Positions 6,910-18,390 of a stretch of DNA of 39,814 nucleotides are shown here, piece by piece. Both the position numbers and the translations under genes were made by a program. The notes beneath the pieces were generated by a model that made no database searches, was not told the origin of the DNA, and worked only from the letters and a program-made list of their open reading frames with translations. Within the stretch, counting starts at the first letter, position 1; each line of letters begins with the position of its first letter. Source of the DNA: Desulfobacterales bacterium. GTDB lineage: Bacteria; Desulfobacterota; Desulfobacteria; Desulfobacterales; JAHEIW01. The stretch is from assembly GCA_030066985.1 (NCBI GenBank), contig JASJAN010000050.1, positions 1-39,814 of the forward strand, written 5' to 3'.

Positions 6910-8796
6910 ATGACGCCATACTCTTTTGACGGCAAAAATGTTCTTGTCACCGGTGCCAGCGGCGGCCTGGGCTCTGCCATAGCGAAATTGCTGGCTGACA
7001 GGGGAGCGCAGTTGGTGGTCTCTTCTCGATCGGAAAAGGCGTTGGATGAGCTGATTTCACAATTGCCGCAAAAAGAAAATGCACGCGCTATTACCGCCGA
7101 CCTGTCTCAACCCGGAGAGGCGACCCGGCTGGCGCAAGAAGCCAGTGCGGTGCTCGGTCATATTGATGTTCTGATCAACAATGCCGGTGTCGGCTATTTT
7201 GCCCTGATGGAAGAGACCAGCGAAGAAAACATTCGCCATCTTTTCGAGGTCAATACGGTTTCGCCTCTGGTGCTGATTAAAACCCTGTTGCCGCAGATGC
7301 AAAAAAGGGGCAGCGGTCGGGTGGTCAATATTTTATCCTGTGCCGGCCGGGTGCCCATTCCAACGGTAGGGGTCTATGGCGGCAGCAAGTCGGCATTGGC
7401 TGTTATGGCCAATACCATGCGCCTGGAACTTGACCCCCAAGGGATTGATGTTATCAATATTTATCCGGGCACGGTAGCCACTGCCTTTGAAGAACATGCT
7501 TTCAGGGAAGAAGAACGACCGGGGCTCTGTCCGCATGACATCTGCGGCGAGCCTCGCTTTCGAATTGCTCAAAAAGTTGTTGAAGCCGCTGCCGGCCCGC
7601 CGGGCGAAGTCTGGCTGGAACGGGCCGGCAAGTGGTTTTCAACGGCGGCGCTCATCTGGCCGAATTATGTTGATCGCCGCCTGTCATCATTGCGCGATCA
7701 GGTGCTTGAAAAGAAATCGCTTAAAAAACGGCCTTGGCGACTCTTTCAGGTGGAATCGGCGATTGCCTGTAATCTGAAGTGCGTCATGTGCCCCTGGAGA
7801 GAGATCGCCAAAAAATCCCAGAATCGCGGTATCATGACCCCGGAAATTTGGGATGCCATACGACCCTATTTAGATCAGGTGCAATCGGTTGATTTTACCG
7901 GTGGCGGTGAGCCCCTGCTCCAACCCCATCTGCCCGAATGGATTGCAGATGCCGTTCAAGCCGGATGTGAAACCGGTTTTTTATCCAACGGGCTGCTGCT
8001 CAAAGAGGACAAACTAAAGAAAATTCTGGCTGCCGGCATTAACTGGATTTGTATTTCCATGGATGGGGCTGATGCCGAGATGTACAACCAAATCCGGGTG
8101 GGGTCTAATTTTAATCGAGTTTGTGAAAACGTGGCCAACATCTCCAGGCTGCGCAGCAACAAGGTGCCCAAAACCATGCTCAATTTTGTTATCATGGACA
8201 TAAACGCGCACCAGATGGAAGATATCGTGAAATTGGCGGATCGTCTGGGGGTGGATCAGATCAATTTCAAGCAATGTGATGTCATTCGCGATCAGGAGGG
8301 AAAAGGCTTTGGCCTTTTTGCCTCCGAGGAAACCAAAGAAATCCGGCGTCTGCAAAAATCGTTGGATAAAGCCCGGCGCCTGGCAAAAAAATTAGACATC
8401 GAAACGACGGCCTTCGCTTTTACACCTGAGGAACTGGCTGTATGCGAGCAGGATCCGCGCGATTCCCTGTTTATTCGATACGACGGCACGGTGGCGCCCT
8501 GTATCAATCTTGCACTCGGCGGACCGACCACATTCTTGGGAGAAGAAGTCACCATTCCTTCGGTCCACTATGGCAAGCTGCCGCAGGACGATTTAATGGA
8601 TTTATGGGAGACAGAGAGCTGTCAATTCTACCGGCAGATATTCCAGGAAAGGGTTGAAAAATTCGATAATATCATCATGAACGGTCTGCTCGGTTCTTCG
8701 GGCAGCAACCGTGTGAAGGTGATGCGCCAGGCCCGGGAAGCCATGCCGGATCCGCCGAAGGGGTGTAATGTGTGTCACTACCTATATGATATATAA
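6910..8796 (+). CDS. Fusion of short-chain dehydrogenase and radical SAM/SPASM enzyme
   Basis: One 628-residue open frame with two complete enzymes. Residues 1-250 are a classical SDR: TGASGGLG (14-21) for NAD(P), NNAG (90-93), Ser143, and YGGSK (Tyr156, Lys160) as catalytic residues. Residues about 280-628 are a radical SAM protein: CNLKCVMC (Cys287, Cys291, Cys294) binds the [4Fe-4S] cluster and TGGGEPLL is the SAM-contacting GGE motif. A C-terminal SPASM-like region has Cys512, Cys531, Cys571, Cys619 and Cys622. The linker (about 240-280) shows no break or frameshift. The SDR would oxidise or reduce a carbonyl or alcohol and the radical SAM half would do a radical step on the same or a linked substrate; the substrate is unknown. 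It lies divergent to paralog 3 and convergent with the stress protein gene. Confidence 0.9.
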   Translation: MTPYSFDGKNVLVTGASGGLGSAIAKLLADRGAQLVVSSRSEKALDELISQLPQKENARAITADLSQPGEATRLAQEASAVLGHIDVLINNAGVGYFALMEETSEENIRHLFEVNTVSPLVLIKTLLPQMQKRGSGRVVNILSCAGRVPIPTVGVYGGSKSALAVMANTMRLELDPQGIDVINIYPGTVATAFEEHAFREEERPGLCPHDICGEPRFRIAQKVVEAAAGPPGEVWLERAGKWFSTAALIWPNYVDRRLSSLRDQVLEKKSLKKRPWRLFQVESAIACNLKCVMCPWREIAKKSQNRGIMTPEIWDAIRPYLDQVQSVDFTGGGEPLLQPHLPEWIADAVQAGCETGFLSNGLLLKEDKLKKILAAGINWICISMDGADAEMYNQIRVGSNFNRVCENVANISRLRSNKVPKTMLNFVIMDINAHQMEDIVKLADRLGVDQINFKQCDVIRDQEGKGFGLFASEETKEIRRLQKSLDKARRLAKKLDIETTAFAFTPEELAVCEQDPRDSLFIRYDGTVAPCINLALGGPTTFLGEEVTIPSVHYGKLPQDDLMDLWETESCQFYRQIFQERVEKFDNIIMNGLLGSSGSNRVKVMRQAREAMPDPPKGCNVCHYLYDI

Positions 8797-9621: not shown

Positions 9622-10197
9622 TTATACCATCCCCCTGAAGGCCATGAAGGTGAGTGACAGAACTCCGGCGGTGACCAGGGCAATGGCGGTGTCCTGAAGT
9701 GGGCGCGGAACCCGGGCTAAAAGAATGCGCTCGCGTACGCCGGCAAACATGATGAGCGCCAGGCCGAAACCGACGGCGTAGCTGAAAGAGGCGACCAGCG
9801 CCTCGAGGAAATTGTATTCTTCATTGATGTTGATCAGGCAAGCGCCCATAACAGCGCAGTTGGTTGTGATCAGGGGCAGGAAAATGCCGAGGCCGGCATA
9901 CAGACCCGGGATGCTTTTTTTAAGGAACATTTCGACAAATTGCACCAGCGAGGCAATCACCAGGATAAATGACACGGTTCGCAGGTATTCAAGACCCAAT
10001 GCTTTCAGGAAATATCTATCGGTAAGCCAGGTGATGACGCCGGCCATAACGAGCACGAACACCACCGCCATGGCCATGCCGACGGCAGTTTCCATTTTCT
10101 TGGAAGTCCCCAGAAACGGGCAGTTACCCAAAAACTGGGCCAGCACAATATTGTTGATCAAGATACAGCTGATTGCCAGAACGATTAAATCGCCCAT
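9622..10197 (-). CDS. rnfA: Rnf complex subunit A (integral membrane)
   Basis: A 191-residue protein with six membrane segments. It begins MGDLIVLAISCILINNIVLAQFLG, matching the RnfA/NqrE signature ..N[NI].VL..FLG, and contains TNCAVMGACL in the middle, also typical. RnfA and RnfE form an inverted pair in the inner membrane, bind a [2Fe-2S] cluster between them, and help carry electrons across the membrane. ATG at 10197 is preferred because AGGAG then lies six bases upstream; an ATG two codons earlier at 10203 touches that site directly. It is the last gene of the cytochrome-rnfCDGEA operon, three codons after rnfE. Unusually, rnfB does not follow it. Confidence 0.93.
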   Translation of the reverse strand: MGDLIVLAISCILINNIVLAQFLGNCPFLGTSKKMETAVGMAMAVVFVLVMAGVITWLTDRYFLKALGLEYLRTVSFILVIASLVQFVEMFLKKSIPGLYAGLGIFLPLITTNCAVMGACLININEEYNFLEALVASFSYAVGFGLALIMFAGVRERILLARVPRPLQDTAIALVTAGVLSLTFMAFRGMV

Positions 10198-10206
10198 CGT
10201 CATCTC

Positions 10207-10821
10207 CTATTTTTTACCCACCAGATTCATCAGACAAAGCATCAAACCCAGCGCGACAAATGCACCCGGCGCTTCGACCATAAACGTAAACGGCTTGTAA
10301 GCCGGACCAAAGGTATTGTAAACCAGGCCCCAGTCCTTCCATAATGTCAGGTAACCGGTGCCCAAAAGTTCGCGTACAGCCGCCAACGCCGCAAGTGAAA
10401 GCGTAAAGCCGATGCCGATCCCCAGACCATCCAGCAGGGATCGAACCACACCGTTTTTAGAGGCAAAGGCTTCTGAACGACCCAGCACCACACAATTAAC
10501 AACAATGAGCGGGATAAAAATGCCCAGTTTCAGAAATAGTGGATAGGCAAAGGCCTGCATGACCAGCTCTACAACGGTCACAAATGTGGCAATAATGACA
10601 ATATAGCAGGCGATTCGGACCTTGGCCGGGATGACTTTGCGCAGCATGGATACCAGCACGTTGGAGCACACCAGCACAAAGGTGGTGGCAACACCCATTC
10701 CGATACCGTTTTCAACGGTTTTGGTTACGGCCAGCACCGGGCACAGGCCCAGGACTAAACGAAACGGCGGAACTTCATCCCATAAGCCTTTGGTAAATTC
10801 CTGTACAATTGATCGGGCCAT
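10207..10821 (-). CDS. rnfE: Rnf complex subunit E (integral membrane)
   Basis: A 204-residue, six-helix membrane protein of the RnfE/NqrD family. It starts ARSIVQEFTKGLWDEVPPFRLVLGLCPVLAVTKTVENGIGMG, with the typical N-P/V-F.LVLGLCP.LAV pattern, and has VVNCVVLGRSEAFA, equivalent to the conserved NC...GR.EA.A stretch. It pairs with RnfA in the membrane. ATG is preceded by GGAG at six bases. It lies between rnfG (12 bases upstream) and rnfA. Confidence 0.95.
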   Translation of the reverse strand: MARSIVQEFTKGLWDEVPPFRLVLGLCPVLAVTKTVENGIGMGVATTFVLVCSNVLVSMLRKVIPAKVRIACYIVIIATFVTVVELVMQAFAYPLFLKLGIFIPLIVVNCVVLGRSEAFASKNGVVRSLLDGLGIGIGFTLSLAALAAVRELLGTGYLTLWKDWGLVYNTFGPAYKPFTFMVEAPGAFVALGLMLCLMNLVGKK

Positions 10822-10833
10822 CCATTGCTCCTA

Positions 10834-11424
10834 TTATTTAAATTCGTTCAGCTTTGCGGTTAGCTGGGGTTTCGCTTTTTCAAATATTTTCAAGGCATCA
10901 TTGGTTGCCGAAGTCACCGCGCGGGATGTAATCGTGGCGCCGCTGATGGCATTAATGCTGCCGCCGTCAGAGGTGACGTTGACCGGTTCTCCCAACGGCA
11001 GCTCTTTGAACTGGGCTGCAAAGCTTGGATCAGTTTTGGCTTTGGCACCCATGCCCGGCGTTTCAGCGTGGGTGGTTACGCCCACCCCCATGATCTGATT
11101 GTTCGAGACGTCAATACCGACCATCAAACCCACATCGCCGCCATAACCTTTACCGGAGGTTTCAAAAGTAATGGCGCGCGGCTCGCCGTCAAAAACACCC
11201 ACAAAAAAGGTGTGCTCGATTTCATCGACCTTAAGTAGAAAGCGATCTACGATGGGGTCGTTGGTGGCCCCTTCCAAAATGGATCGGATGGCCGGACCTT
11301 TGACAAATTCAAGGACCTGGTTTTCAATGCGATCCTTGGTGTTATCGCGTATGGCGGCCAGCAGCCCTCCGGATAAGGTGGCCAGAATTGTCAGGACAAG
11401 CAGCATTTTTATCATTTCACGCAT
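10834..11424 (-). CDS. rnfG: Rnf complex subunit G (periplasmic FMN-bearing subunit)
   Basis: A 196-residue protein with one N-terminal membrane anchor (about residues 5-24) and a periplasmic FMN-binding domain. SGATITS at 161-167 is the flavinylation motif; Thr164 is the expected site of covalent FMN attachment by ApbE, which is not encoded in this window. GYGGDVGLMVGID and HAETPGMGAK are further family motifs. The ATG at 11424 is chosen because GGAAAGG lies upstream and the gene then starts one base after the rnfD stop; an in-frame TTG at 11442 would overlap rnfD. Confidence 0.93.
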   Translation of the reverse strand: MREMIKMLLVLTILATLSGGLLAAIRDNTKDRIENQVLEFVKGPAIRSILEGATNDPIVDRFLLKVDEIEHTFFVGVFDGEPRAITFETSGKGYGGDVGLMVGIDVSNNQIMGVGVTTHAETPGMGAKAKTDPSFAAQFKELPLGEPVNVTSDGGSINAISGATITSRAVTSATNDALKIFEKAKPQLTAKLNEFK

Positions 11425-11425
11425 C

Positions 11426-12421
11426 TTATTCAACCTTTCCAAGTGCCGGGGGTCGGATTTTATCCAGCAGGGGGCTAATCAGATTGATGACCAGAATGGC
11501 CAGAATAACCCCATCCACCCAGGCGCCGATATTGCGGATCAGCACGGTCATAATCCCACCAACGGCGCCATAAATCAGCATGGGTATGAAATTGACGGGT
11601 GAAGACGAATCTTCGGTGGCCAGGAAAAAAGCGCCGATTAAGGTATAGCCGGTTAGCAGGTGAAAGGCCGGCGGCGCAAACTGGGCCGGATTGAACAGAT
11701 TAAAGACGGTGGCTGTTAAATAGACACCGGCCAGGAAGGTGAGGGATATTTCCCAGCGGATAAAGCCTCTCAGCATCAGGTAGACGCCGCCGATGATAAG
11801 ACCCAGACCAAAGGTCGCGCCGGGACCGCCCAGCTGCCGTCCCATGAGAAGATCCACCAGGTTGAAGTTGTCCGCCGAGGCGGCGCCGTAATATTTTACA
11901 GCCGCCAGCGGGTAAACGGTGGCAAATTCGAGATCGTAATTGAGCAGGGCGGCATCAAAGTCCAACAGGCTTCCCCATGAGAGCATCATCATTGCCAGTG
12001 CCAGCGCGACCGGATGAAAGGCGTTGCTGCCAATACCGCCAAATATTTGCTTGCCAACAACGACCACAATGAACGTGCCGGTGATGACCGCCCACCAGGG
12101 CATGGTGGCCGGAACGAGCATGGCAAACAGCATTCCCAGCCAGGCGGCGTTTCCGTCGCCGATGGTGATGGTTCTTTTGGTCACCAGGTTAATGGCCAGC
12201 TCCCAGATGATCGCTGAGGAGATCGCTAGGCAGACCACACCCAATGCCTGCATGCCATAGTGGTATAAGCCCAGCAAAAGCGCCGGCAGGGCGGCCAGCA
12301 TGGTATGATAACTGCGCTCGGTTATCGAACGCCCGCTATGAAAGAACGGGGCATGGGATACGATTAATTTTTTCTGTCCTAGGGGTAATTGCTGCTCAAG
12401 CATGTCTCTTTTCTCAAGCAT
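11426..12421 (-). CDS. rnfD: Rnf complex subunit D (integral membrane, FMN-bearing)
   Basis: A 331-residue multi-spanning protein of the RnfD/NqrB family. It opens with a short soluble segment ending SHAPFFHSGRSITERSYHTMLAALPAL, typical of RnfD. The PGAT within RQLGGPGATFGLG corresponds to the S/P-GAT motif whose Thr carries covalent FMN. GSNAFHPVALALAMM is also conserved. ATG at 12421 is chosen because GGAGG lies seven bases upstream; this overlaps the rnfC stop by eight bases, implying coupling. Upstream in-frame codons inside rnfC do not look like RnfD. Confidence 0.93.
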   Translation of the reverse strand: MLEKRDMLEQQLPLGQKKLIVSHAPFFHSGRSITERSYHTMLAALPALLLGLYHYGMQALGVVCLAISSAIIWELAINLVTKRTITIGDGNAAWLGMLFAMLVPATMPWWAVITGTFIVVVVGKQIFGGIGSNAFHPVALALAMMMLSWGSLLDFDAALLNYDLEFATVYPLAAVKYYGAASADNFNLVDLLMGRQLGGPGATFGLGLIIGGVYLMLRGFIRWEISLTFLAGVYLTATVFNLFNPAQFAPPAFHLLTGYTLIGAFFLATEDSSSPVNFIPMLIYGAVGGIMTVLIRNIGAWVDGVILAILVINLISPLLDKIRPPALGKVE

Positions 12422-13697
12422 TCGCTGCCTCCAACGTTTTTGCGCGTTCCAGCTCGTATTTTGCCAACTTGATATACTGCAAAATCGGGATTTGGGATAC
12501 GCATACATAGCTGCAAAGGCCGCAATCGATACACGAATATAAATCGTAGTTGTCGGCGGCCTCTTCATATTGGTTGGCTTCCAGAAATCGAACCAGCATG
12601 TTGACCTGAATCTTCGCCGGGCAAATCCGGATACATTCACCGCAGTTGATACACGGATAATCTGAAGCATAGGCAGCCGCGTTGCGGTCCACCACAATTA
12701 CGGCATCGGTGTCCGACTGAACAGGATGATCCAACGCATAAACCGCCGAACCGGTCATCGGACCGCCGAGAATAATGCGGTCAAATTCGTTAACCGTTTC
12801 ATCATAGGCTTCCAGGATATGACGGATTGGGGTGCCAATGCAGGTTTCAATGATTCTGTAGGTACCGTCTTTTTTAATGAATGTTAAGGTCTTGTCGGTC
12901 GGAATGTGCCCGGTTTCAAAGGCACTGCCAATAGAGATCACTGCCTCGGCATTGATAAAACAGGCTCCCAAATCCTCACAGGTCTGCCCGGCCGGCAGAA
13001 CCTGTCCGAGAACCTCTTTCACCACCATGGGCTCTAAGGCGGCCGGATATTGTGTTTTGACCCCGGCGACCCGGGCGCCGATATGACCATACCCTTGCAC
13101 CGTTTCACCGGCAGTAAATAAAACAAAATCCTGCACGTCGGTCACTTCTTTGAGGATCTGAATCCCCTTTGTGAGATCCTTCATGCGGGATTGAGCGATA
13201 TACTGACTGGTATCCACCATCGGGTCAGGGTCCAGTCCCCTGATGACAATGGTTTTGATGTTGCCGTTTGAATTGGCAAGCTTGGCGATCGGTGGTGCGC
13301 CCGGGACACCGACCAGATAGTCGCTAAGCAGCTCAAAAGACGGCGTTTGCTTTTTTTGCTGGAAGGTGTCGTCAAACGTTTCGGCTTCATCCCGTGCAAT
13401 GCTGATGGCCATATAATCTTTGCCGAAATCACCCGCATAAGGTGAAAGGGCGGCTATCCTACCGCTGATCGGAGAAATCACATAGTGCTTCTCATCCGGA
13501 TAAAGGGCTAACTTTTGACCGGTTTTGACTGAATCGCCGATGGCCAGTGCCGACGGGGTTTTGTAATCATCATTTTTGGGGTGATACAGGGTGATGGTTT
13601 TGGGGGCCGGAAGTTTTTCCGTTCCCGGAAGCTGAGCAGGCAGGGTTTCATAATTAATTTGCGGTGTGGATAAACCCAAAAATGCTTTTTTAATCAT
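12414..13697 (-). CDS. rnfC: Rnf complex subunit C with degenerate FMN/NADH site
   Basis: A 427-residue soluble subunit. Two ferredoxin-type [4Fe-4S] motifs are intact: Cys349/352/355/359 (CINCGECIRICP) and Cys389/392/395/399 (CIDCGLCSYVCV). The N-terminal barrel (SPISGRIAAL), GTPIRHIL and GGPMTG are also kept. However, the three stretches that in canonical RnfC form the FMN/NADH site are changed. GLGGAGFPT is replaced by GVPGAPPI (about 130-137), N[AG]AECEPY by RGLDPDPM (153-160), and the YPSGG.KQL stretch by YPAALEPMV (217-225). So it is recognisably RnfC but may not react with NADH. It follows the cytochrome gene by 49 bases and overlaps rnfD. The motif comparison is from memory of the family. 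Confidence 0.93.
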   Translation of the reverse strand: MIKKAFLGLSTPQINYETLPAQLPGTEKLPAPKTITLYHPKNDDYKTPSALAIGDSVKTGQKLALYPDEKHYVISPISGRIAALSPYAGDFGKDYMAISIARDEAETFDDTFQQKKQTPSFELLSDYLVGVPGAPPIAKLANSNGNIKTIVIRGLDPDPMVDTSQYIAQSRMKDLTKGIQILKEVTDVQDFVLFTAGETVQGYGHIGARVAGVKTQYPAALEPMVVKEVLGQVLPAGQTCEDLGACFINAEAVISIGSAFETGHIPTDKTLTFIKKDGTYRIIETCIGTPIRHILEAYDETVNEFDRIILGGPMTGSAVYALDHPVQSDTDAVIVVDRNAAAYASDYPCINCGECIRICPAKIQVNMLVRFLEANQYEEAADNYDLYSCIDCGLCSYVCVSQIPILQYIKLAKYELERAKTLEAANA

Positions 13698-13746: not shown

Positions 13747-14181
13747 TTATAGTGCATGACAGCCGGTACACTCTACCGGACCGGCTTCAAAATCCTGGTG
13801 ACATTTGATACACTGGTCATGGAATGCGTCGCCCCGCGTCAGCATTTCCGTATCTTCGAAATCAGATTCATCATGACAATCCAGACAAGTTTCATTGACC
13901 TCAGTTTCTTCTGCTGGGGGCAAATGACATGCACCACAGGCAACAAGCGCCGAATCGTCCTCTGGGGGATGATGGTGGCAGTCAAAACACGACAGCCCGT
14001 AACCTTCTATGGATGCGTGTGTTTTATGGTTGAACAGGACATTGCCCGCCGCAACCGTATACATCAAACGCAGCGGCTCTTCCGGCGCCTTGAGCGGAAA
14101 GGCGGCGTAGCTAATCACACCGATGACCAATAAACATATGGCCAATGCACCTGCCAGTTTCATTTCTTTTTTTGAAAACAT
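13747..14181 (-). CDS. Membrane-anchored pentahaem c-type cytochrome linked to Rnf
   Basis: A 144-residue protein with an N-terminal membrane anchor or uncleaved signal (about residues 9-28) and five CxxCH haem-attachment motifs, at Cys65, Cys82, Cys99, Cys124 and Cys138. Additional histidines (His52, His55, His70, His71, His121) could be distal ligands, as in class III (c3/c7-like) cytochromes. It would sit on the periplasmic face. It is the first gene of the cytochrome-rnfCDGEA operon, 49 bases before rnfC, so it most likely takes electrons from, or gives them to, the complex. A cytochrome next to rnf is known in some sulfate reducers and in Methanosarcina acetivorans. Five motifs is one more than the classic tetrahaem c3. 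Confidence 0.9.
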   Translation of the reverse strand: MFSKKEMKLAGALAICLLVIGVISYAAFPLKAPEEPLRLMYTVAAGNVLFNHKTHASIEGYGLSCFDCHHHPPEDDSALVACGACHLPPAEETEVNETCLDCHDESDFEDTEMLTRGDAFHDQCIKCHQDFEAGPVECTGCHAL

Positions 14182-14518: not shown

Positions 14519-15001
14519 TTACCACCGATTAATAATATCATAGCCCCTGCGACGGGCGACTTCATCTTGAAGCTGGTGAAATCGTTGGCCGACGACAATC
14601 ATGACCTTTGCCATAACGCGGTATCCCAGCTGGGCGTCATCTTCGAACAGTTGCAGCAGTCGGTCTCGCGAGATTTTGATCGTCTTGCAGCTTCGCGAAG
14701 CGCAGTGGGCAGAAAGGCGGTACTTGTTGGGCGGCACCAGACTAGACCAGCCGAAAGGCATCCCTTCGGTCAGGGTCGAGATGGTGTCTTCGGGCATTGC
14801 CGGTCCTTCGGGGGCATCCCAGATCAGATTCACCTCACCGTCAAGCACGAGCCAAAAATATTCAGGGACTTGTCCGGCCGCAAAGATGGTTTCGCCGCGT
14901 TTAAATTTTGCGACTTCGCAGCATTCCTGTACGGTTGCCAGCTGATCATCATCCAGGTCTGAAAACGCATCCACATCTTCCAAAAAATCGAGATCGACCA
15001 T
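14519..15001 (-). CDS. Cyclic-nucleotide-binding-domain (Crp-like sensor) protein without DNA-binding domain
   Basis: A 160-residue protein that consists of little more than a cyclic-nucleotide-binding fold: FLEDVDAFSDLDDDQL..V, FKRGETIFAAGQVPEYFWLVLDGEVNLI, then PFGWSSLVPPNKYRLSAHC and a C-terminal helix. There is no helix-turn-helix, so it is not a transcription factor by itself. The typical phosphate-binding RxS segment is not obvious, so the ligand may not be cAMP. It is related to the first domain of the next gene (shared GWSS.VPP.KY.LSA), implying a tandem duplication. ATG has AAGGGGG upstream. It lies 14 bases after that gene, probably co-transcribed. Confidence 0.82.
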   Translation of the reverse strand: MVDLDFLEDVDAFSDLDDDQLATVQECCEVAKFKRGETIFAAGQVPEYFWLVLDGEVNLIWDAPEGPAMPEDTISTLTEGMPFGWSSLVPPNKYRLSAHCASRSCKTIKISRDRLLQLFEDDAQLGYRVMAKVMIVVGQRFHQLQDEVARRRGYDIINRW

Positions 15002-15015
15002 AAAAGCCCCCTTTG

Positions 15016-15762
15016 TTATTGGACCAATACAAAATCGGTCTGAACATCACCCCCTAGAATATGCTTTTCAAATACCTGACGCATCTTCTCGGGAGTCATT
15101 TTTTGATATATGACCGGCTCACTGCTGCCGAATTCAACTGTAATGTTAGGCTCATTTTTGCAATGACCAATGCATCCGGCACTGGCCACCTCAATATCTT
15201 GTCGATTTGATTTGGAAATTTCTTCCATCAAGGCGCTCATCACCTGGCGCGCACCGGCGGCAATGCCACAGGTGGACATGTGAACTGTAATTTTAACCTT
15301 CGACACCGGCGAGACAGTGGCCGATTCTTGGAGTTGATCAAAATGCTGGCTGGCGATGGTAGCCACATTTGTCATGAACATCAGCCCCATGCGGGGATCT
15401 GCCTCAAAACATTCCAGGAGGTGATCTTTCTGGATTTGCAGGATTTTGCAGGTTTTGGTGGCACTATAAGCGGAAAGCGCATACTTGAAAGGCGGTACGA
15501 AACTTGACCAGCCCAGCGTCTGCGCAGCAGATATCGCGAAAACAGTGTTTTGCTCCGAAGTGGGGCGGCCCGGCAAATCAAATCGAAGGTGGACCTGTCC
15601 ATCAACGACCAGCCAGATGCGGTCGGCATCATCCCCTTCGGCAAACAGTTTTTCTTCAAAGAGATATTGCTTTTCCTGCCCGCTTTTACCGGCAGCATTT
15701 AACTGATCCTGATTGAATCCCTTGAAGATGTCGACCTTCTTTAAAAAGTCCAGACCACCCAT
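15016..15762 (-). CDS. Cyclic-nucleotide-binding domain fused to thioredoxin-like ferredoxin domain
   Basis: A 248-residue two-domain protein. Residues 1-145 are a cyclic-nucleotide-binding fold (LFAEGDDADRIWLVVDGQVHL, GWSSFVPPFKYALSAYS) like the neighbouring gene. Residues about 155-248 resemble the thioredoxin-like [2Fe-2S] domain of NuoE/HndB-type proteins: HMSTCGIAAGARQVM (Cys165) and SAGCIGHCKNEP (Cys197, Cys201). Only three of the four usual cysteines are present; the fourth position after Cys165 is Gly170. This suits a redox-responsive sensor or an electron-transfer accessory of the Rnf system. ATG is preceded by GAGGAGG. It sits between rnfB and the rest of the rnf genes on the same strand. 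Confidence 0.83.
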   Translation of the reverse strand: MGGLDFLKKVDIFKGFNQDQLNAAGKSGQEKQYLFEEKLFAEGDDADRIWLVVDGQVHLRFDLPGRPTSEQNTVFAISAAQTLGWSSFVPPFKYALSAYSATKTCKILQIQKDHLLECFEADPRMGLMFMTNVATIASQHFDQLQESATVSPVSKVKITVHMSTCGIAAGARQVMSALMEEISKSNRQDIEVASAGCIGHCKNEPNITVEFGSSEPVIYQKMTPEKMRQVFEKHILGGDVQTDFVLVQ

Positions 15763-16043: not shown

Positions 16044-18161
16044 TTAGGCTGCCTCCCCCAATTTGTTTTTTGTTGTCGGGTGCGGAGGGGTGCTTACCGC
16101 TCCGTCCGGGTCATAGCATGTCAGACAGCATGAAAGACAGCGATTGCTTTCACCCGCGGCGGCATCTCGTGACAGCACCTGATCGACTTCAATAAAAGAA
16201 TGGATGCGCTCCTGCACCTCCAGCTCCGGCATCGGCGCTCTGGTATTTTTGACAATCCCGTCTACCTGGTCAAATAGGGTTTCGGCGATCAGATCACTGT
16301 TTAATTCATTATTTTGGGCTTTTACTTCCTGCCCCATGATAAACTGGTGAATCGAGCGGGCAGCCCTTCGTCCGCCGCCAATCGCTGACACCACCAGAGA
16401 CGGACCCGTGGCGGCATCACCGGCGGCAAACAAATACGGGATATTGGACTGCAGGGTGTCCGGATCCACATCGATGGTATTCCAGCGTGTGGTATTCAGA
16501 TCAGCCAGGCGTTTCTGCGTGCGCTCGGTAAACGAAACATCCGGGGATTGGCCGATGGCCGTAATCACCATATCGGTTTGCAGTAGGGTTTCAGAGCCTT
16601 CGATGGGCACCGGCCGGCGCCTGCCGCTTGCGTCGGGTTCGCCGAGCTCCATCTTTAGATACTCAAGATGGGTGGCATGGCCGTCATCATCAGCGATGAT
16701 TTTCGTTGGCGCCGCCAGAAATTGAAACTCAACCCCTTCATGCTCGGCCGCGTCAATTTCGACCTCATTGGCCGGCATCTCCCCGCGGGTGCGTCGATAA
16801 ACGATATAGACCTTTTTGGCTCCCATACGAATGAGATTGCGGGTACAGTCGATGGCCGTATTGCCCCCGCCGATAATCGCGGCTGTTTTGCCAATGGGAA
16901 GCTTTTCGCCACTGGCCAGGCGCGACAGAAAATCAATTCCGGTATAGCAGCCTTTGAGATCTTCTCCCTCCACCCGCAAGCTGGCATCCTTCCAGGCGCC
17001 GATGCCCATGAAAATGGCATCAAAGCCGGATGCGACCAAAGAGCTGAGGTCAAAATCATGACCGAATTTCACATTGGTGTGAAAATCGACGCCCAAATCG
17101 AGAATGCTTTCGATTTCCCAATCCAGGACCGCTTTGGGCAGGCGATATTCAGGTATACCATAGCGCAGCATGCCCCCCATTTTGGGCATGGCTTCAAAAA
17201 TATTGACCTGATGGCCCAGGCGCCTGAGAAAAAAGGCACAGGTGAGTCCAGCCGGCCCACCGCCGATAACTGCAACGCGCTTGCGCGTATCGGGGGCTGT
17301 CGGTATCGGTAGGCGATCGCCGGAATTCATTTCATAATCAGCGACAAAGCGCTTCAACTGATTAATGGACACCGGTTCATCTTCAATTCCCCGGCGGCAG
17401 TTTTCTTCGCAGGGGTGCGGGCATACCCGCCCACAGGACAACAGAAACGGGTTTCGCTCTCGGATAGTATTGACAGCGCCCTCATAGTCGCCCTCACGAA
17501 TCTGGGCGATATATTGGGGTATGTCGATTTCAGCGGGACAGGTCTGACGGCAGGGCGCCAGCCGATCGCTGCTGCGATTAAAATGCATCAGGCGCTCAGA
17601 CATGGTTTTAACCTTCATGACATATTTGGGGCAAACCGTTTCGCAAGCGCCGCAACCGACACATTTTTCTTCAATCACCTCCGGGTATCCGTGGGGGCCC
17701 ATTTTGAGCGCATTGAACTGGCAGGCGTCGATGCAGTCGCCCAGTCCAATGCATCCGACAGTGCAAGCCCGTTGGCCGCCGGATAAAACTGCCTGGGCTC
17801 GGCAGGTATTGACCCCCAGATAGACAAATTTGTCTGCAGCGCGTTCGCCCCCGCTGCAAGGGTTATAGGATTTTGGGGGCTCAGCCAGACCGACTTCCAC
17901 TCCCATAACAGCGGCGGCGTTGGCAGCTGATTCAGGGCCGCCGACGATACAAACACTGGGGTCCGCTTCGCCTGCGACAACAGCGACAGCTGCAGCGGAA
18001 CACCCGGCATAACCGCAACCGCCGCAATTGGCGCCTGCAAAAGTGGCTTCCACACGGGCAATACGTGGATCTTCATATACATAAAAAACACGGGATGCCG
18101 CTGTTAAAATTGCAGCGCAAACCATTCCCAGGCCCAACATAAAAAAAATACTTGCAATCAT
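16044..18161 (-). CDS. rnfB: RnfB fused to GltD/NfnB-like FAD-NAD(P)H oxidoreductase
   Basis: A 705-residue fusion. Residues 1-185 are RnfB: an N-terminal membrane helix, the Fe-S (FeS/DUF4) domain with Cys46, Cys49, Cys54, Cys71, and two [4Fe-4S] motifs (Cys133/137/143/147 and Cys167/170/173/177). Residues about 198-705 are like the small subunit of glutamate synthase or NfnB. They comprise an N-terminal Cys-rich part (Cys204, 208, 243, 247, 251, 255), the FAD motif VAVIGGGPAGL (about 297-306), the NAD(P)H motif GGGNTAID (431-438) with downstream YRR that suggests NADPH, and FAAGDA plus a C-terminal FAD segment. A second Cys cluster NRCLSCCLTC is near the C-terminus. ATG at 18161 follows AAGGAGA at four bases. 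RnfB normally accepts electrons from ferredoxin; here it gains its own flavoprotein. Confidence 0.93.
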   Translation of the reverse strand: MIASIFFMLGLGMVCAAILTAASRVFYVYEDPRIARVEATFAGANCGGCGYAGCSAAAVAVVAGEADPSVCIVGGPESAANAAAVMGVEVGLAEPPKSYNPCSGGERAADKFVYLGVNTCRAQAVLSGGQRACTVGCIGLGDCIDACQFNALKMGPHGYPEVIEEKCVGCGACETVCPKYVMKVKTMSERLMHFNRSSDRLAPCRQTCPAEIDIPQYIAQIREGDYEGAVNTIRERNPFLLSCGRVCPHPCEENCRRGIEDEPVSINQLKRFVADYEMNSGDRLPIPTAPDTRKRVAVIGGGPAGLTCAFFLRRLGHQVNIFEAMPKMGGMLRYGIPEYRLPKAVLDWEIESILDLGVDFHTNVKFGHDFDLSSLVASGFDAIFMGIGAWKDASLRVEGEDLKGCYTGIDFLSRLASGEKLPIGKTAAIIGGGNTAIDCTRNLIRMGAKKVYIVYRRTRGEMPANEVEIDAAEHEGVEFQFLAAPTKIIADDDGHATHLEYLKMELGEPDASGRRRPVPIEGSETLLQTDMVITAIGQSPDVSFTERTQKRLADLNTTRWNTIDVDPDTLQSNIPYLFAAGDAATGPSLVVSAIGGGRRAARSIHQFIMGQEVKAQNNELNSDLIAETLFDQVDGIVKNTRAPMPELEVQERIHSFIEVDQVLSRDAAAGESNRCLSCCLTCYDPDGAVSTPPHPTTKNKLGEAA

Positions 18162-18390
18162 CGCATCTCCTTGCCGATTCTCCTGCTGTATCAAATCGAC
18201 CACAGTGCAACATATCGGTTCGACATTTGGTTCCGTTTAAAAAAGGGTTTTAATTATCATCTCAGGCTCATATTTTCAAGTATGTTTCATCATTTTTTTG
18301 CAATATTATCCATATTCTTGACGATCGGGGAGGTTACTTCATCAGGAGTTATGGGTTGGAGGGTACAAGATGGCAGATCGGTTGATTAAT

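What the first reader, a model, noticed from the sequence alone, without database searches (positions are those of the whole stretch)
12414..13697. RnfC that keeps its Fe-S clusters but has lost all three FMN/NADH motifs
RnfC is related to the NADH-oxidising subunit of complex I and normally has GLGGAGFPT, N[AG]AECEPY and YPSGG.KQL. Here these read GVPGAPPI, RGLDPDPM and YPAALEPMV, while both CxxCxxCxxxC motifs, GTP.R.. and GGPM.G are intact. The protein is thus not decayed; it has specifically lost the nucleotide site. With a multihaem cytochrome as the neighbouring gene, the complex may pass electrons between ferredoxin and a periplasmic cytochrome rather than NAD+, comparable to the Rnf of Methanosarcina acetivorans.
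Basis: partly seen in the sequence, partly recalled or inferred. Interest (0 to 1): 0.75.

Follow-up and report, generated by a model that had tools for sequence, protein, structure and literature searches.

The report
Rnf pump lacking its return path
A sulfate-reducer's membrane ion pump that normally sends electrons across the membrane and back to NAD+ has lost the flavin sites of the return route, so it probably hands electrons to cytochromes outside the membrane instead; the loss in one subunit was already reported, the matching loss in a second subunit was not found in the papers searched.

Summary
In detail: the minus-strand gene at 12414-13697 is an RnfC with both Fe-S motifs but no FMN/NADH motifs. 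That part is in print: PMC5109826 describes it for Desulfobacula toluolica, with a ~700-aa RnfB, and a like complex with a small cytochrome in Desulfococcus multivorans.

New here: RnfD has lost its FMN site too. Of 101 loci read, 74 have this RnfC. In these the FMN threonine of RnfD is absent in 72 of 74 and its pocket Arg in 74 of 74; ordinary loci have both in 25 of 25. RnfG's FMN threonine (73 of 73) and RnfC's cysteines (74 of 74) stay. A multihaem cytochrome gene adjoins 66 of 74, against 0 of 26; RnfB is fused to a GltD-like NAD(P)H module in 54 of 74. RnfA+RnfE trees split the types by one branch.

Best reading: the return limb RnfG-RnfD-RnfC-NAD+ is gone; the complex exchanges electrons between ferredoxin/NAD(P)H at RnfB and periplasmic cytochrome at RnfG. 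Function is untested; D. alaskensis cytochrome mutants and the kept RnfC clusters speak against it.

The parts
12414..13697 (-). rnfC, 427 aa: two [4Fe-4S] motifs kept, FMN/NADH motifs lost
11426..12403 (-). rnfD, 325 aa (ATG at 12403): covalent-FMN Thr is Tyr, pocket Arg is Leu and Glu is Ala; riboflavin ligands Asn is His and Asp is Glu
10834..11442 (-). rnfG, 202 aa as listed (TTG start uncertain): FMN motif SGATIT and HAETPG kept; over the cut-off of NF045876 RnfG_DVU2794
10207..10821 (-). rnfE: both [2Fe-2S] cysteines kept
9622..10203 (-). rnfA: both [2Fe-2S] cysteines and the Thr111/Asn112 equivalents kept
13747..14181 (-). class III-type cytochrome c, 144 aa, 5 CxxCH, hydrophobic N-terminal segment; directly upstream of rnfC
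16044..18164 (-). rnfB fused to a GltD/NfnA-like FAD and NAD(P)H module, 706 aa from the ATG at 18164 that follows AAGGAG (the longer GTG frame runs to 18203, 719 aa)
15016..15762 (-). cNMP-binding domain plus thioredoxin-like [2Fe-2S] domain, between rnfB and the cytochrome gene; in this place also in L043-L045 (same family)
14519..15001 (-). cNMP-binding domain protein in the same interval

Best explanation
This is an Rnf-family ion pump whose electron path has been cut short. In characterised Rnf, electrons go from ferredoxin to RnfB, to the [2Fe-2S] cluster of RnfA/E, to FMN of RnfG on the outside, then back through FMN and riboflavin of RnfD to the Fe-S clusters, FMN and NAD+ of RnfC. Here the limb to the outside (RnfB, A, E, G) keeps its cofactor residues, while the FMN site of RnfD and the FMN/NADH motifs of RnfC are both gone (shown by sequence). 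I infer that electrons leave or enter at RnfG through the small multihaem cytochrome, that ferredoxin and, through the fused GltD-like module, NAD(P)H react at RnfB, and that ion movement at RnfA/E is still coupled. The enzyme would be a reversible, ion-coupled ferredoxin/NAD(P)H : periplasmic cytochrome c oxidoreductase. What the kept Fe-S clusters of RnfC do is not known; my guess is a further cytoplasmic docking port beside RnfB.
For: RnfD FMN-Thr 2 of 74 against 25 of 25, pocket Arg 0 of 74 against 25 of 25, Glu 2 of 74 against 25 of 25; no column from -4 to +3 round the site is steadily Ser/Thr (at most 21 of 74). RnfG FMN-Thr 73 of 73; RnfA Cys 70 of 70; RnfE Cys 70 of 72, the other two (L117, L125) being short ORFs with a gap at the second Cys; Thr111 and Asn112 equivalents of RnfA 70 of 70. 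Cytochrome gene adjacent in 66 of 74 against 0 of 26; RnfB-GltD fusion in 54 of 74 against 0 of 26, in 1 of which no RnfB was found. RnfA+RnfE trees, made without RnfC/D/G: one change of type, SH-aLRT 99 with 94 loci and 100/100 with 57 chosen loci. Path and landmark residues from passages of PMC9588780 and PMC11889175. M. acetivorans precedent for RnfG to cytochrome c (PMC4023990). A cytochrome-linked Rnf joining the periplasmic cytochrome pool to cytoplasmic NAD(P)H/ferredoxin is a published hypothesis cited in PMC4287179.
Against: D. [quoted passage not shown] PMC4841214); I could not test whether that Rnf is of this type. 8 of 74 loci lack an adjacent cytochrome gene. The 8 RnfC cysteines and newly conserved residues round them suggest that RnfC still carries electrons, which a chain ending at RnfG does not need. 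Riboflavin ligands in RnfD are partly kept (Asn 61 of 74; Asp or Glu 74 of 74). Non-covalent FMN in RnfD is not excluded. In L129 and L130 a Thr stands at the FMN column. The FMN domain of RnfC still passes its Pfam cut-off. No biochemistry and no usable structure model.
Confidence: 0.6

Rival explanations
1. The U-shaped path survives with non-covalently held flavin in RnfD; electrons reach the RnfC Fe-S clusters and pass to an unknown cytoplasmic acceptor other than NAD+.
For: RnfC cysteines 74 of 74 with newly conserved surroundings, riboflavin ligands partly kept. PMC5109826 says that an RnfC acceptor other than NAD+ has to be identified. A two-subunit Nqr/Rnf-like system that lacks the RnfD flavinylation site was modelled with a non-covalent flavin there (PMC11334425 section 9).
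Against: Besides the Thr, the pocket Arg (0 of 74) and Glu (2 of 74) are lost; the link with the cytochrome gene is left unexplained.
Confidence: 0.16
2. The NAD(P)H site has moved: the GltD module on RnfB stands beside RnfC and exchanges electrons with its Fe-S clusters, so the complex is a ferredoxin:NADP oxidoreductase and the cytochrome is accessory.
For: Fusion in 54 of 74 loci; FAD and NAD(P) motif patterns found in 43 and 42 of 55 fused proteins, one of them from the left-out locus L072; solved relatives include NfnA and GltD-like parts.
Against: Loci with short RnfB (L120-L125) already have the degenerate RnfC and RnfD, so the losses do not depend on the fusion; without RnfD FMN the route to RnfC is still broken.
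Confidence: 0.1
3. RnfC is an outward relay: RnfB passes electrons to the RnfC clusters and on through RnfD to RnfG and the cytochrome, as the 2014 model for M. acetivorans has it.
For: That model gives RnfC Fe-S clusters a role without NAD (PMC4023990, passages) and would explain the cysteines kept in 74 of 74.
Against: In the A. woodii structure direct RnfB to RnfC transfer is held unlikely (over 30 A, PMC11889175), and RnfD here has lost its FMN site; RnfA/E cysteines are kept.
Confidence: 0.06
4. RnfC still binds FMN and NAD(H) with other residues.
For: Pfam Complex1_51K still matches just over its cut-off; some pocket positions are conserved anew; GG of the first motif is seen in L117-L119 and a Lys or Arg stands at the Lys of the third motif in 23 of 74.
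Against: Full GG..FP in 0 of 74; first and second Glu of ECE in 7 and 11 of 74; the RnfD FMN that would feed it is lost in the same loci.
Confidence: 0.04
5. RnfC has become structural only, like NqrA of the Na+-NQR.
For: NqrA is the precedent for a cofactor-free relative of RnfC (PMC4014512, passages).
Against: NqrA has lost its Fe-S cysteines; here 74 of 74 keep all 8.
Confidence: 0.04

Closest known systems
Desulfobacula toluolica Tol2-type Rnf, Rnf2 of Desulfococcus multivorans (PMC5109826, section 23 read in full)
   Same: RnfC without the NADH-oxidoreductase part, RnfB of ~700 aa with NAD-binding sites, a small (15 kDa) cytochrome in the D. multivorans rnf2 cluster. My genome G010 has the two rnf clusters at 3.10 and 3.12 Mb of one contig and is probably that species (inference).
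   Different: That section names RnfD only as part of the usual electron path and says nothing of its FMN site; it gives no wider distribution. The window also has two cNMP-domain genes and rnfB upstream.
Canonical ferredoxin:NAD+ Rnf (Acetobacterium woodii, Clostridium tetanomorphum)
   Same: Six subunits, RnfG FMN motif, RnfA/E cysteines, RnfC Fe-S motifs.
   Different: RnfD FMN site and RnfC FMN/NADH motifs absent; RnfB-GltD fusion; cytochrome gene.
Methanosarcina acetivorans Rnf with cytochrome c (PMC4023990, passages)
   Same: Cytochrome c gene co-transcribed with rnf; RnfG proposed to donate to cytochrome c; no NAD(P) reaction. The paper names only a 'potential' flavin motif SGTF in its RnfD.
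   Different: Archaeal; sequences not compared here; no RnfB-GltD fusion mentioned in the passages seen.
rnfCDGEA with a putative cytochrome c gene in Desulfotignum phosphitoxidans (PMC4046663, passages)
   Same: Same gene set, with a cytochrome c gene as a candidate part.
   Different: No residue analysis in the passages seen.
Nqr/Rnf-like two-subunit systems (PMC11334425, section 9)
   Same: RnfD-like subunit without the flavinylation site; proposed one-way flow from NAD(P)H to the outside.
   Different: Two subunits with a PF00175 domain; no RnfA, B, C or E.

Membership tests
Canonical Rnf (ferredoxin:NAD+ oxidoreductase) | six subunits RnfABCDEG encoded together | tested here: met
Canonical Rnf (ferredoxin:NAD+ oxidoreductase) | RnfC over the TIGR01945 cut-off, with FMN/NADH motifs | tested here: not met
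   195.9 against 245.95 bits; motifs lost
Canonical Rnf (ferredoxin:NAD+ oxidoreductase) | RnfD covalent-FMN threonine | tested here: not met
   Tyr in the window; Thr in 25 of 25 canonical loci
Canonical Rnf (ferredoxin:NAD+ oxidoreductase) | RnfG covalent-FMN threonine | tested here: met
Canonical Rnf (ferredoxin:NAD+ oxidoreductase) | ferredoxin:NAD+ activity and ion pumping | not testable with these tools
   needs the purified complex
Tol2-type Rnf2 of sulfate reducers | RnfC lacking the NADH-oxidoreductase part | tested here: met
   motifs lost, although Pfam Complex1_51K still passes its cut-off; compared with the description, not with the Tol2 sequence
Tol2-type Rnf2 of sulfate reducers | RnfB of about 700 aa with NAD-binding sites | tested here: met
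   706 or 719 aa, GltD-like
Tol2-type Rnf2 of sulfate reducers | small cytochrome gene in the cluster (as in D. multivorans) | tested here: met
   13747-14181, 5 CxxCH
M. acetivorans-type Rnf | multihaem cytochrome as a working subunit | tested here: inconclusive
   gene adjacency in 66 of 74; no functional test
M. acetivorans-type Rnf | no reaction with NAD(P) | not testable with these tools
   the GltD-like part of RnfB suggests the opposite

The most novel reading that the evidence does not exclude
A whole clade of Desulfobacterota Rnf complexes is a natural 'half Rnf': the return limb (FMN of RnfD, nucleotide site of RnfC) was lost once, and the enzyme is an ion-coupled ferredoxin/NAD(P)H : periplasmic cytochrome c oxidoreductase. 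If it still pumps, ion transport does not need the RnfD FMN, which would favour the RnfA/E pumping model over the RnfD-channel model.
Probability: 0.5. Interest if true: 0.82.

Novelty: new variant of a known kind. Interest (0 to 1): 0.62.

Why it matters
How electrons pass between the cytoplasm and the periplasmic cytochrome pool of sulfate reducers is an open question, and this complex is common: of 194 genomes searched in the order, 156 have an RnfC like this one (E 1e-50 or better), and in 104 of these no canonical RnfC over the TIGR01945 cut-off was found. Papers on sulfate reducers treat Rnf as moving electrons between ferredoxin and NADH (for example PMC4215793 and PMC10553843, passages). 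If the return limb is really gone, such models are wrong where only this type is present, and the complex is a natural test between two pumping models: ion transport in RnfA/E (PMC11889175) or in RnfD, driven by its FMN (PMC9588780).

Tried and rejected
Structure prediction of RnfC from the window protein and L011 alone failed (mean pLDDT 30.5); no fold search was made. A plasmid search gave 31 records, all under 60% identity; the 15 listed lie at 24-28% and were not read further. I did not reach Desulfovibrio: the classes of G230 (6 genomes) and G208 (63 genomes), searched, look like other lineages (inference; the contig length of G208, 3,655,731 bp, is recalled as that of Desulfarculus baarsii). 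As a link I scanned 10 RnfG with NF045876 RnfG_DVU2794, cut-off 205: the 5 of the degenerate type scored 185-249 bits (3 over the cut-off), the 5 canonical ones 86-133; this suggests, but does not show, that Desulfovibrio Rnf is of this type. A search for the flavinylation pattern in whole RnfD proteins was of little use: [ST]GA[TS] occurs in 0 of 74 degenerate but also in only 3 of 25 canonical ones, [ST]xA[TS] in 23 of 74 and 24 of 25; the aligned columns are the evidence. Decay, a second RnfC in the genome, and a chance reading of the motifs were tested and rejected. No paper on an NqrB Thr236Tyr variant was found (0 hits); that chain 9ud3_B has SGAY where 9lrr_B has SGAT is seen, and that it is an engineered variant is my inference. 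The first residue table used a wrong column for the RnfD Arg; the right one is.

Full report
What is there. The finding lies on the minus strand. In the order of transcription the window holds rnfB, a cNMP/[2Fe-2S] protein, a cNMP protein, a cytochrome, rnfC, rnfD, rnfG, rnfE and rnfA. The genome held is 5.07 Mb in 81 contigs; of the two relatives found among named genome contigs, the fuller one is an uncultured Desulfobacterales MAG (L011, RnfC 84% identical). The genome has one RnfC, one ApbE flavin transferase and an NqrA, so NADH probably has another pump.

RnfC. The form is common: of 194 genomes in the order, 170 match P0001 at E 1e-20 or better. Counting E 1e-50 or better as this type gives 156; canonical RnfC over the TIGR01945 cut-off is in 66. 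By comparing the two lists, 52 have both, 14 only the canonical one, 104 only this type, 24 neither. These classes rest on scores, not on reading each motif, and many of the genomes are incomplete.

Set compared. I read 101 loci: the window, 60 loci of the order and 40 of the phylum. I chose them by hand, for contig length and to cover both types and the whole range of scores; they are not a random draw. 74 have degenerate RnfC and 26 canonical; L072, which holds cut pieces of both, was left out of the counts. Not every locus holds every gene, hence the differing totals. A further 28 loci (L015-L042, partly the same genomes) were read for RnfC and RnfD only, and all 28 are degenerate in both.

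RnfD. Aligned to solved RnfD chains, the window has Tyr at the Thr that carries FMN (Thr153 of C. tetanomorphum, Thr156 of A. woodii), Leu at Arg130 and Ala at Glu185 (landmarks from passages of PMC9588780 and PMC11889175). In the 74 loci the Thr is found in 2 (L129, L130, in an unlike context), the Arg in 0 and the Glu in 2 (L124, L125); canonical loci have each in 25 of 25. No neighbouring column is steadily Ser or Thr. The riboflavin site is less changed: Asn in 61 of 74; Asp in 14 and Glu in 60 of 74. In A. woodii N123A and D249A variants of that site lost activity (PMC11889175).

What is kept. RnfG FMN threonine 73 of 73; RnfA cysteines 70 of 70; RnfE cysteines 70 of 72 (two short ORFs), in canonical loci 23 of 24 (L141 differs); RnfC cysteines 74 of 74. 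The equivalents of RnfA Thr111 and Asn112 are kept in 70 of 70, those of RnfE Leu103 and Val106 in 71 of 72, the last being a gap; these are residues named in the A. woodii sodium model.

History. RnfA+RnfE trees use none of the subunits in question. With 94 loci (70 degenerate, 24 canonical) a quick tree needs one change of type, at a branch with SH-aLRT 99; it warned of long branches. With 57 chosen loci (36 and 21), long branches removed, a careful tree gives 100/100, and 200 of 200 bootstrap trees need one change. The root is not given, so one joint loss is the simplest reading, not a proof. The RnfB fusion needs 3 changes on the first tree, and L120-L125 have short RnfB, so the loss does not depend on the fusion.

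Cytochrome. A gene with 3 to 8 CxxCH within 3 kb on the same strand is present in 66 of 74 degenerate and 0 of 26 canonical loci; in the order it is 48 of 48, in the phylum set 18 of 26. The 8 genomes without it next door (L120, L123, L127, L129, L130, L135, L137, L139) all have cytochrome c3 genes elsewhere (8 of 8).

RnfB. The window's RnfB continues into a GltD/NfnA-like part with FAD and NAD(P) domains. The fusion is scored in 54 of 74 (with some short frames: L055, L095, L098), short RnfB in 11, none found in 9; canonical loci have 25 short and 1 not found. A GGGN[TVS]A pattern is present in 42 of 55 fused proteins, so not every module need bind NAD(P) in the same way. PMC11434368 (passages) describes loss of rnfB and an FAD-dependent oxidoreductase gene at the operon's end in many Desulfovibrionaceae; I suspect the same fusion.

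Mechanism. In A. woodii, direct transfer between RnfB and RnfC is held unlikely (over 30 A); with RnfD lacking its FMN site, the outlet that keeps its cofactor is RnfG on the outer face. Shown here: which residues are kept or lost. Inferred: that FMN is absent from RnfD, that electrons pass to the cytochrome, that NAD(P)H enters at RnfB, that ions are pumped. The kept clusters of RnfC are the main thing this reading does not explain; the M. acetivorans model of PMC4023990, with RnfC as a relay towards RnfG, is a rival that would.

Prior art. The RnfC loss and large RnfB are in PMC5109826 (section 23 read in full), which cites work on D. toluolica that I did not see. A periplasmic-cytochrome link of Rnf in sulfate reducers is cited as a hypothesis in PMC4287179 (passages) and PMC4841214 (discussion read). 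I found no mention of the RnfD loss in ten paper searches, of which searches were aimed at it. This covers only the open-licence library, and I opened 15 papers, mostly as passages; the rest I saw as listings.

Evidence against. D. [quoted passage not shown] The authors of PMC4841214 found a smaller proton-motive force in rnf mutants, and could not demonstrate in vesicles an ion gradient coupled to ferredoxin oxidation with NAD+ reduction. The second point would fit a complex that does not reduce NAD+, but a failed assay is weak evidence, and I could not check that this Rnf is of the degenerate type.

Noticed in passing
15016-15762 and 14519-15001 (-): Two cNMP-domain proteins, the first fused to a thioredoxin-like [2Fe-2S] domain, lie between rnfB and the cytochrome gene; in this place they are seen in the window and L043-L045. 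A cNMP relative also follows rnfB in L085. rnfB is upstream of rnfC in these and in L046-L048, downstream of rnfA in most others.
   Followed up: partly
G000:C53:2623-3960 (L006, L148): The genome also has NqrA (584 bits), so probably a Na+-NQR that takes NADH separately; the other nqr genes were not sought.
   Followed up: partly
window 6910-8796 (+): One ORF joins a short-chain dehydrogenase and a radical SAM/SPASM part.
   Followed up: no
L085, L094, L099, L116, L126: The rnf-linked cytochrome has 8 CxxCH here instead of the usual 4 or 5.
   Followed up: no
L129, L130 (RnfD): Thr stands at the FMN column in an altered context (AET[LF]LMQLK) while Arg and Glu are lost: chance or an intermediate.
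   Followed up: no
P0001 residues 351-415: The Fe-S domain of this RnfC type has many newly conserved residues (N351, N366, R370, Y377, D385, L411), as if it bound a new partner.
   Followed up: no
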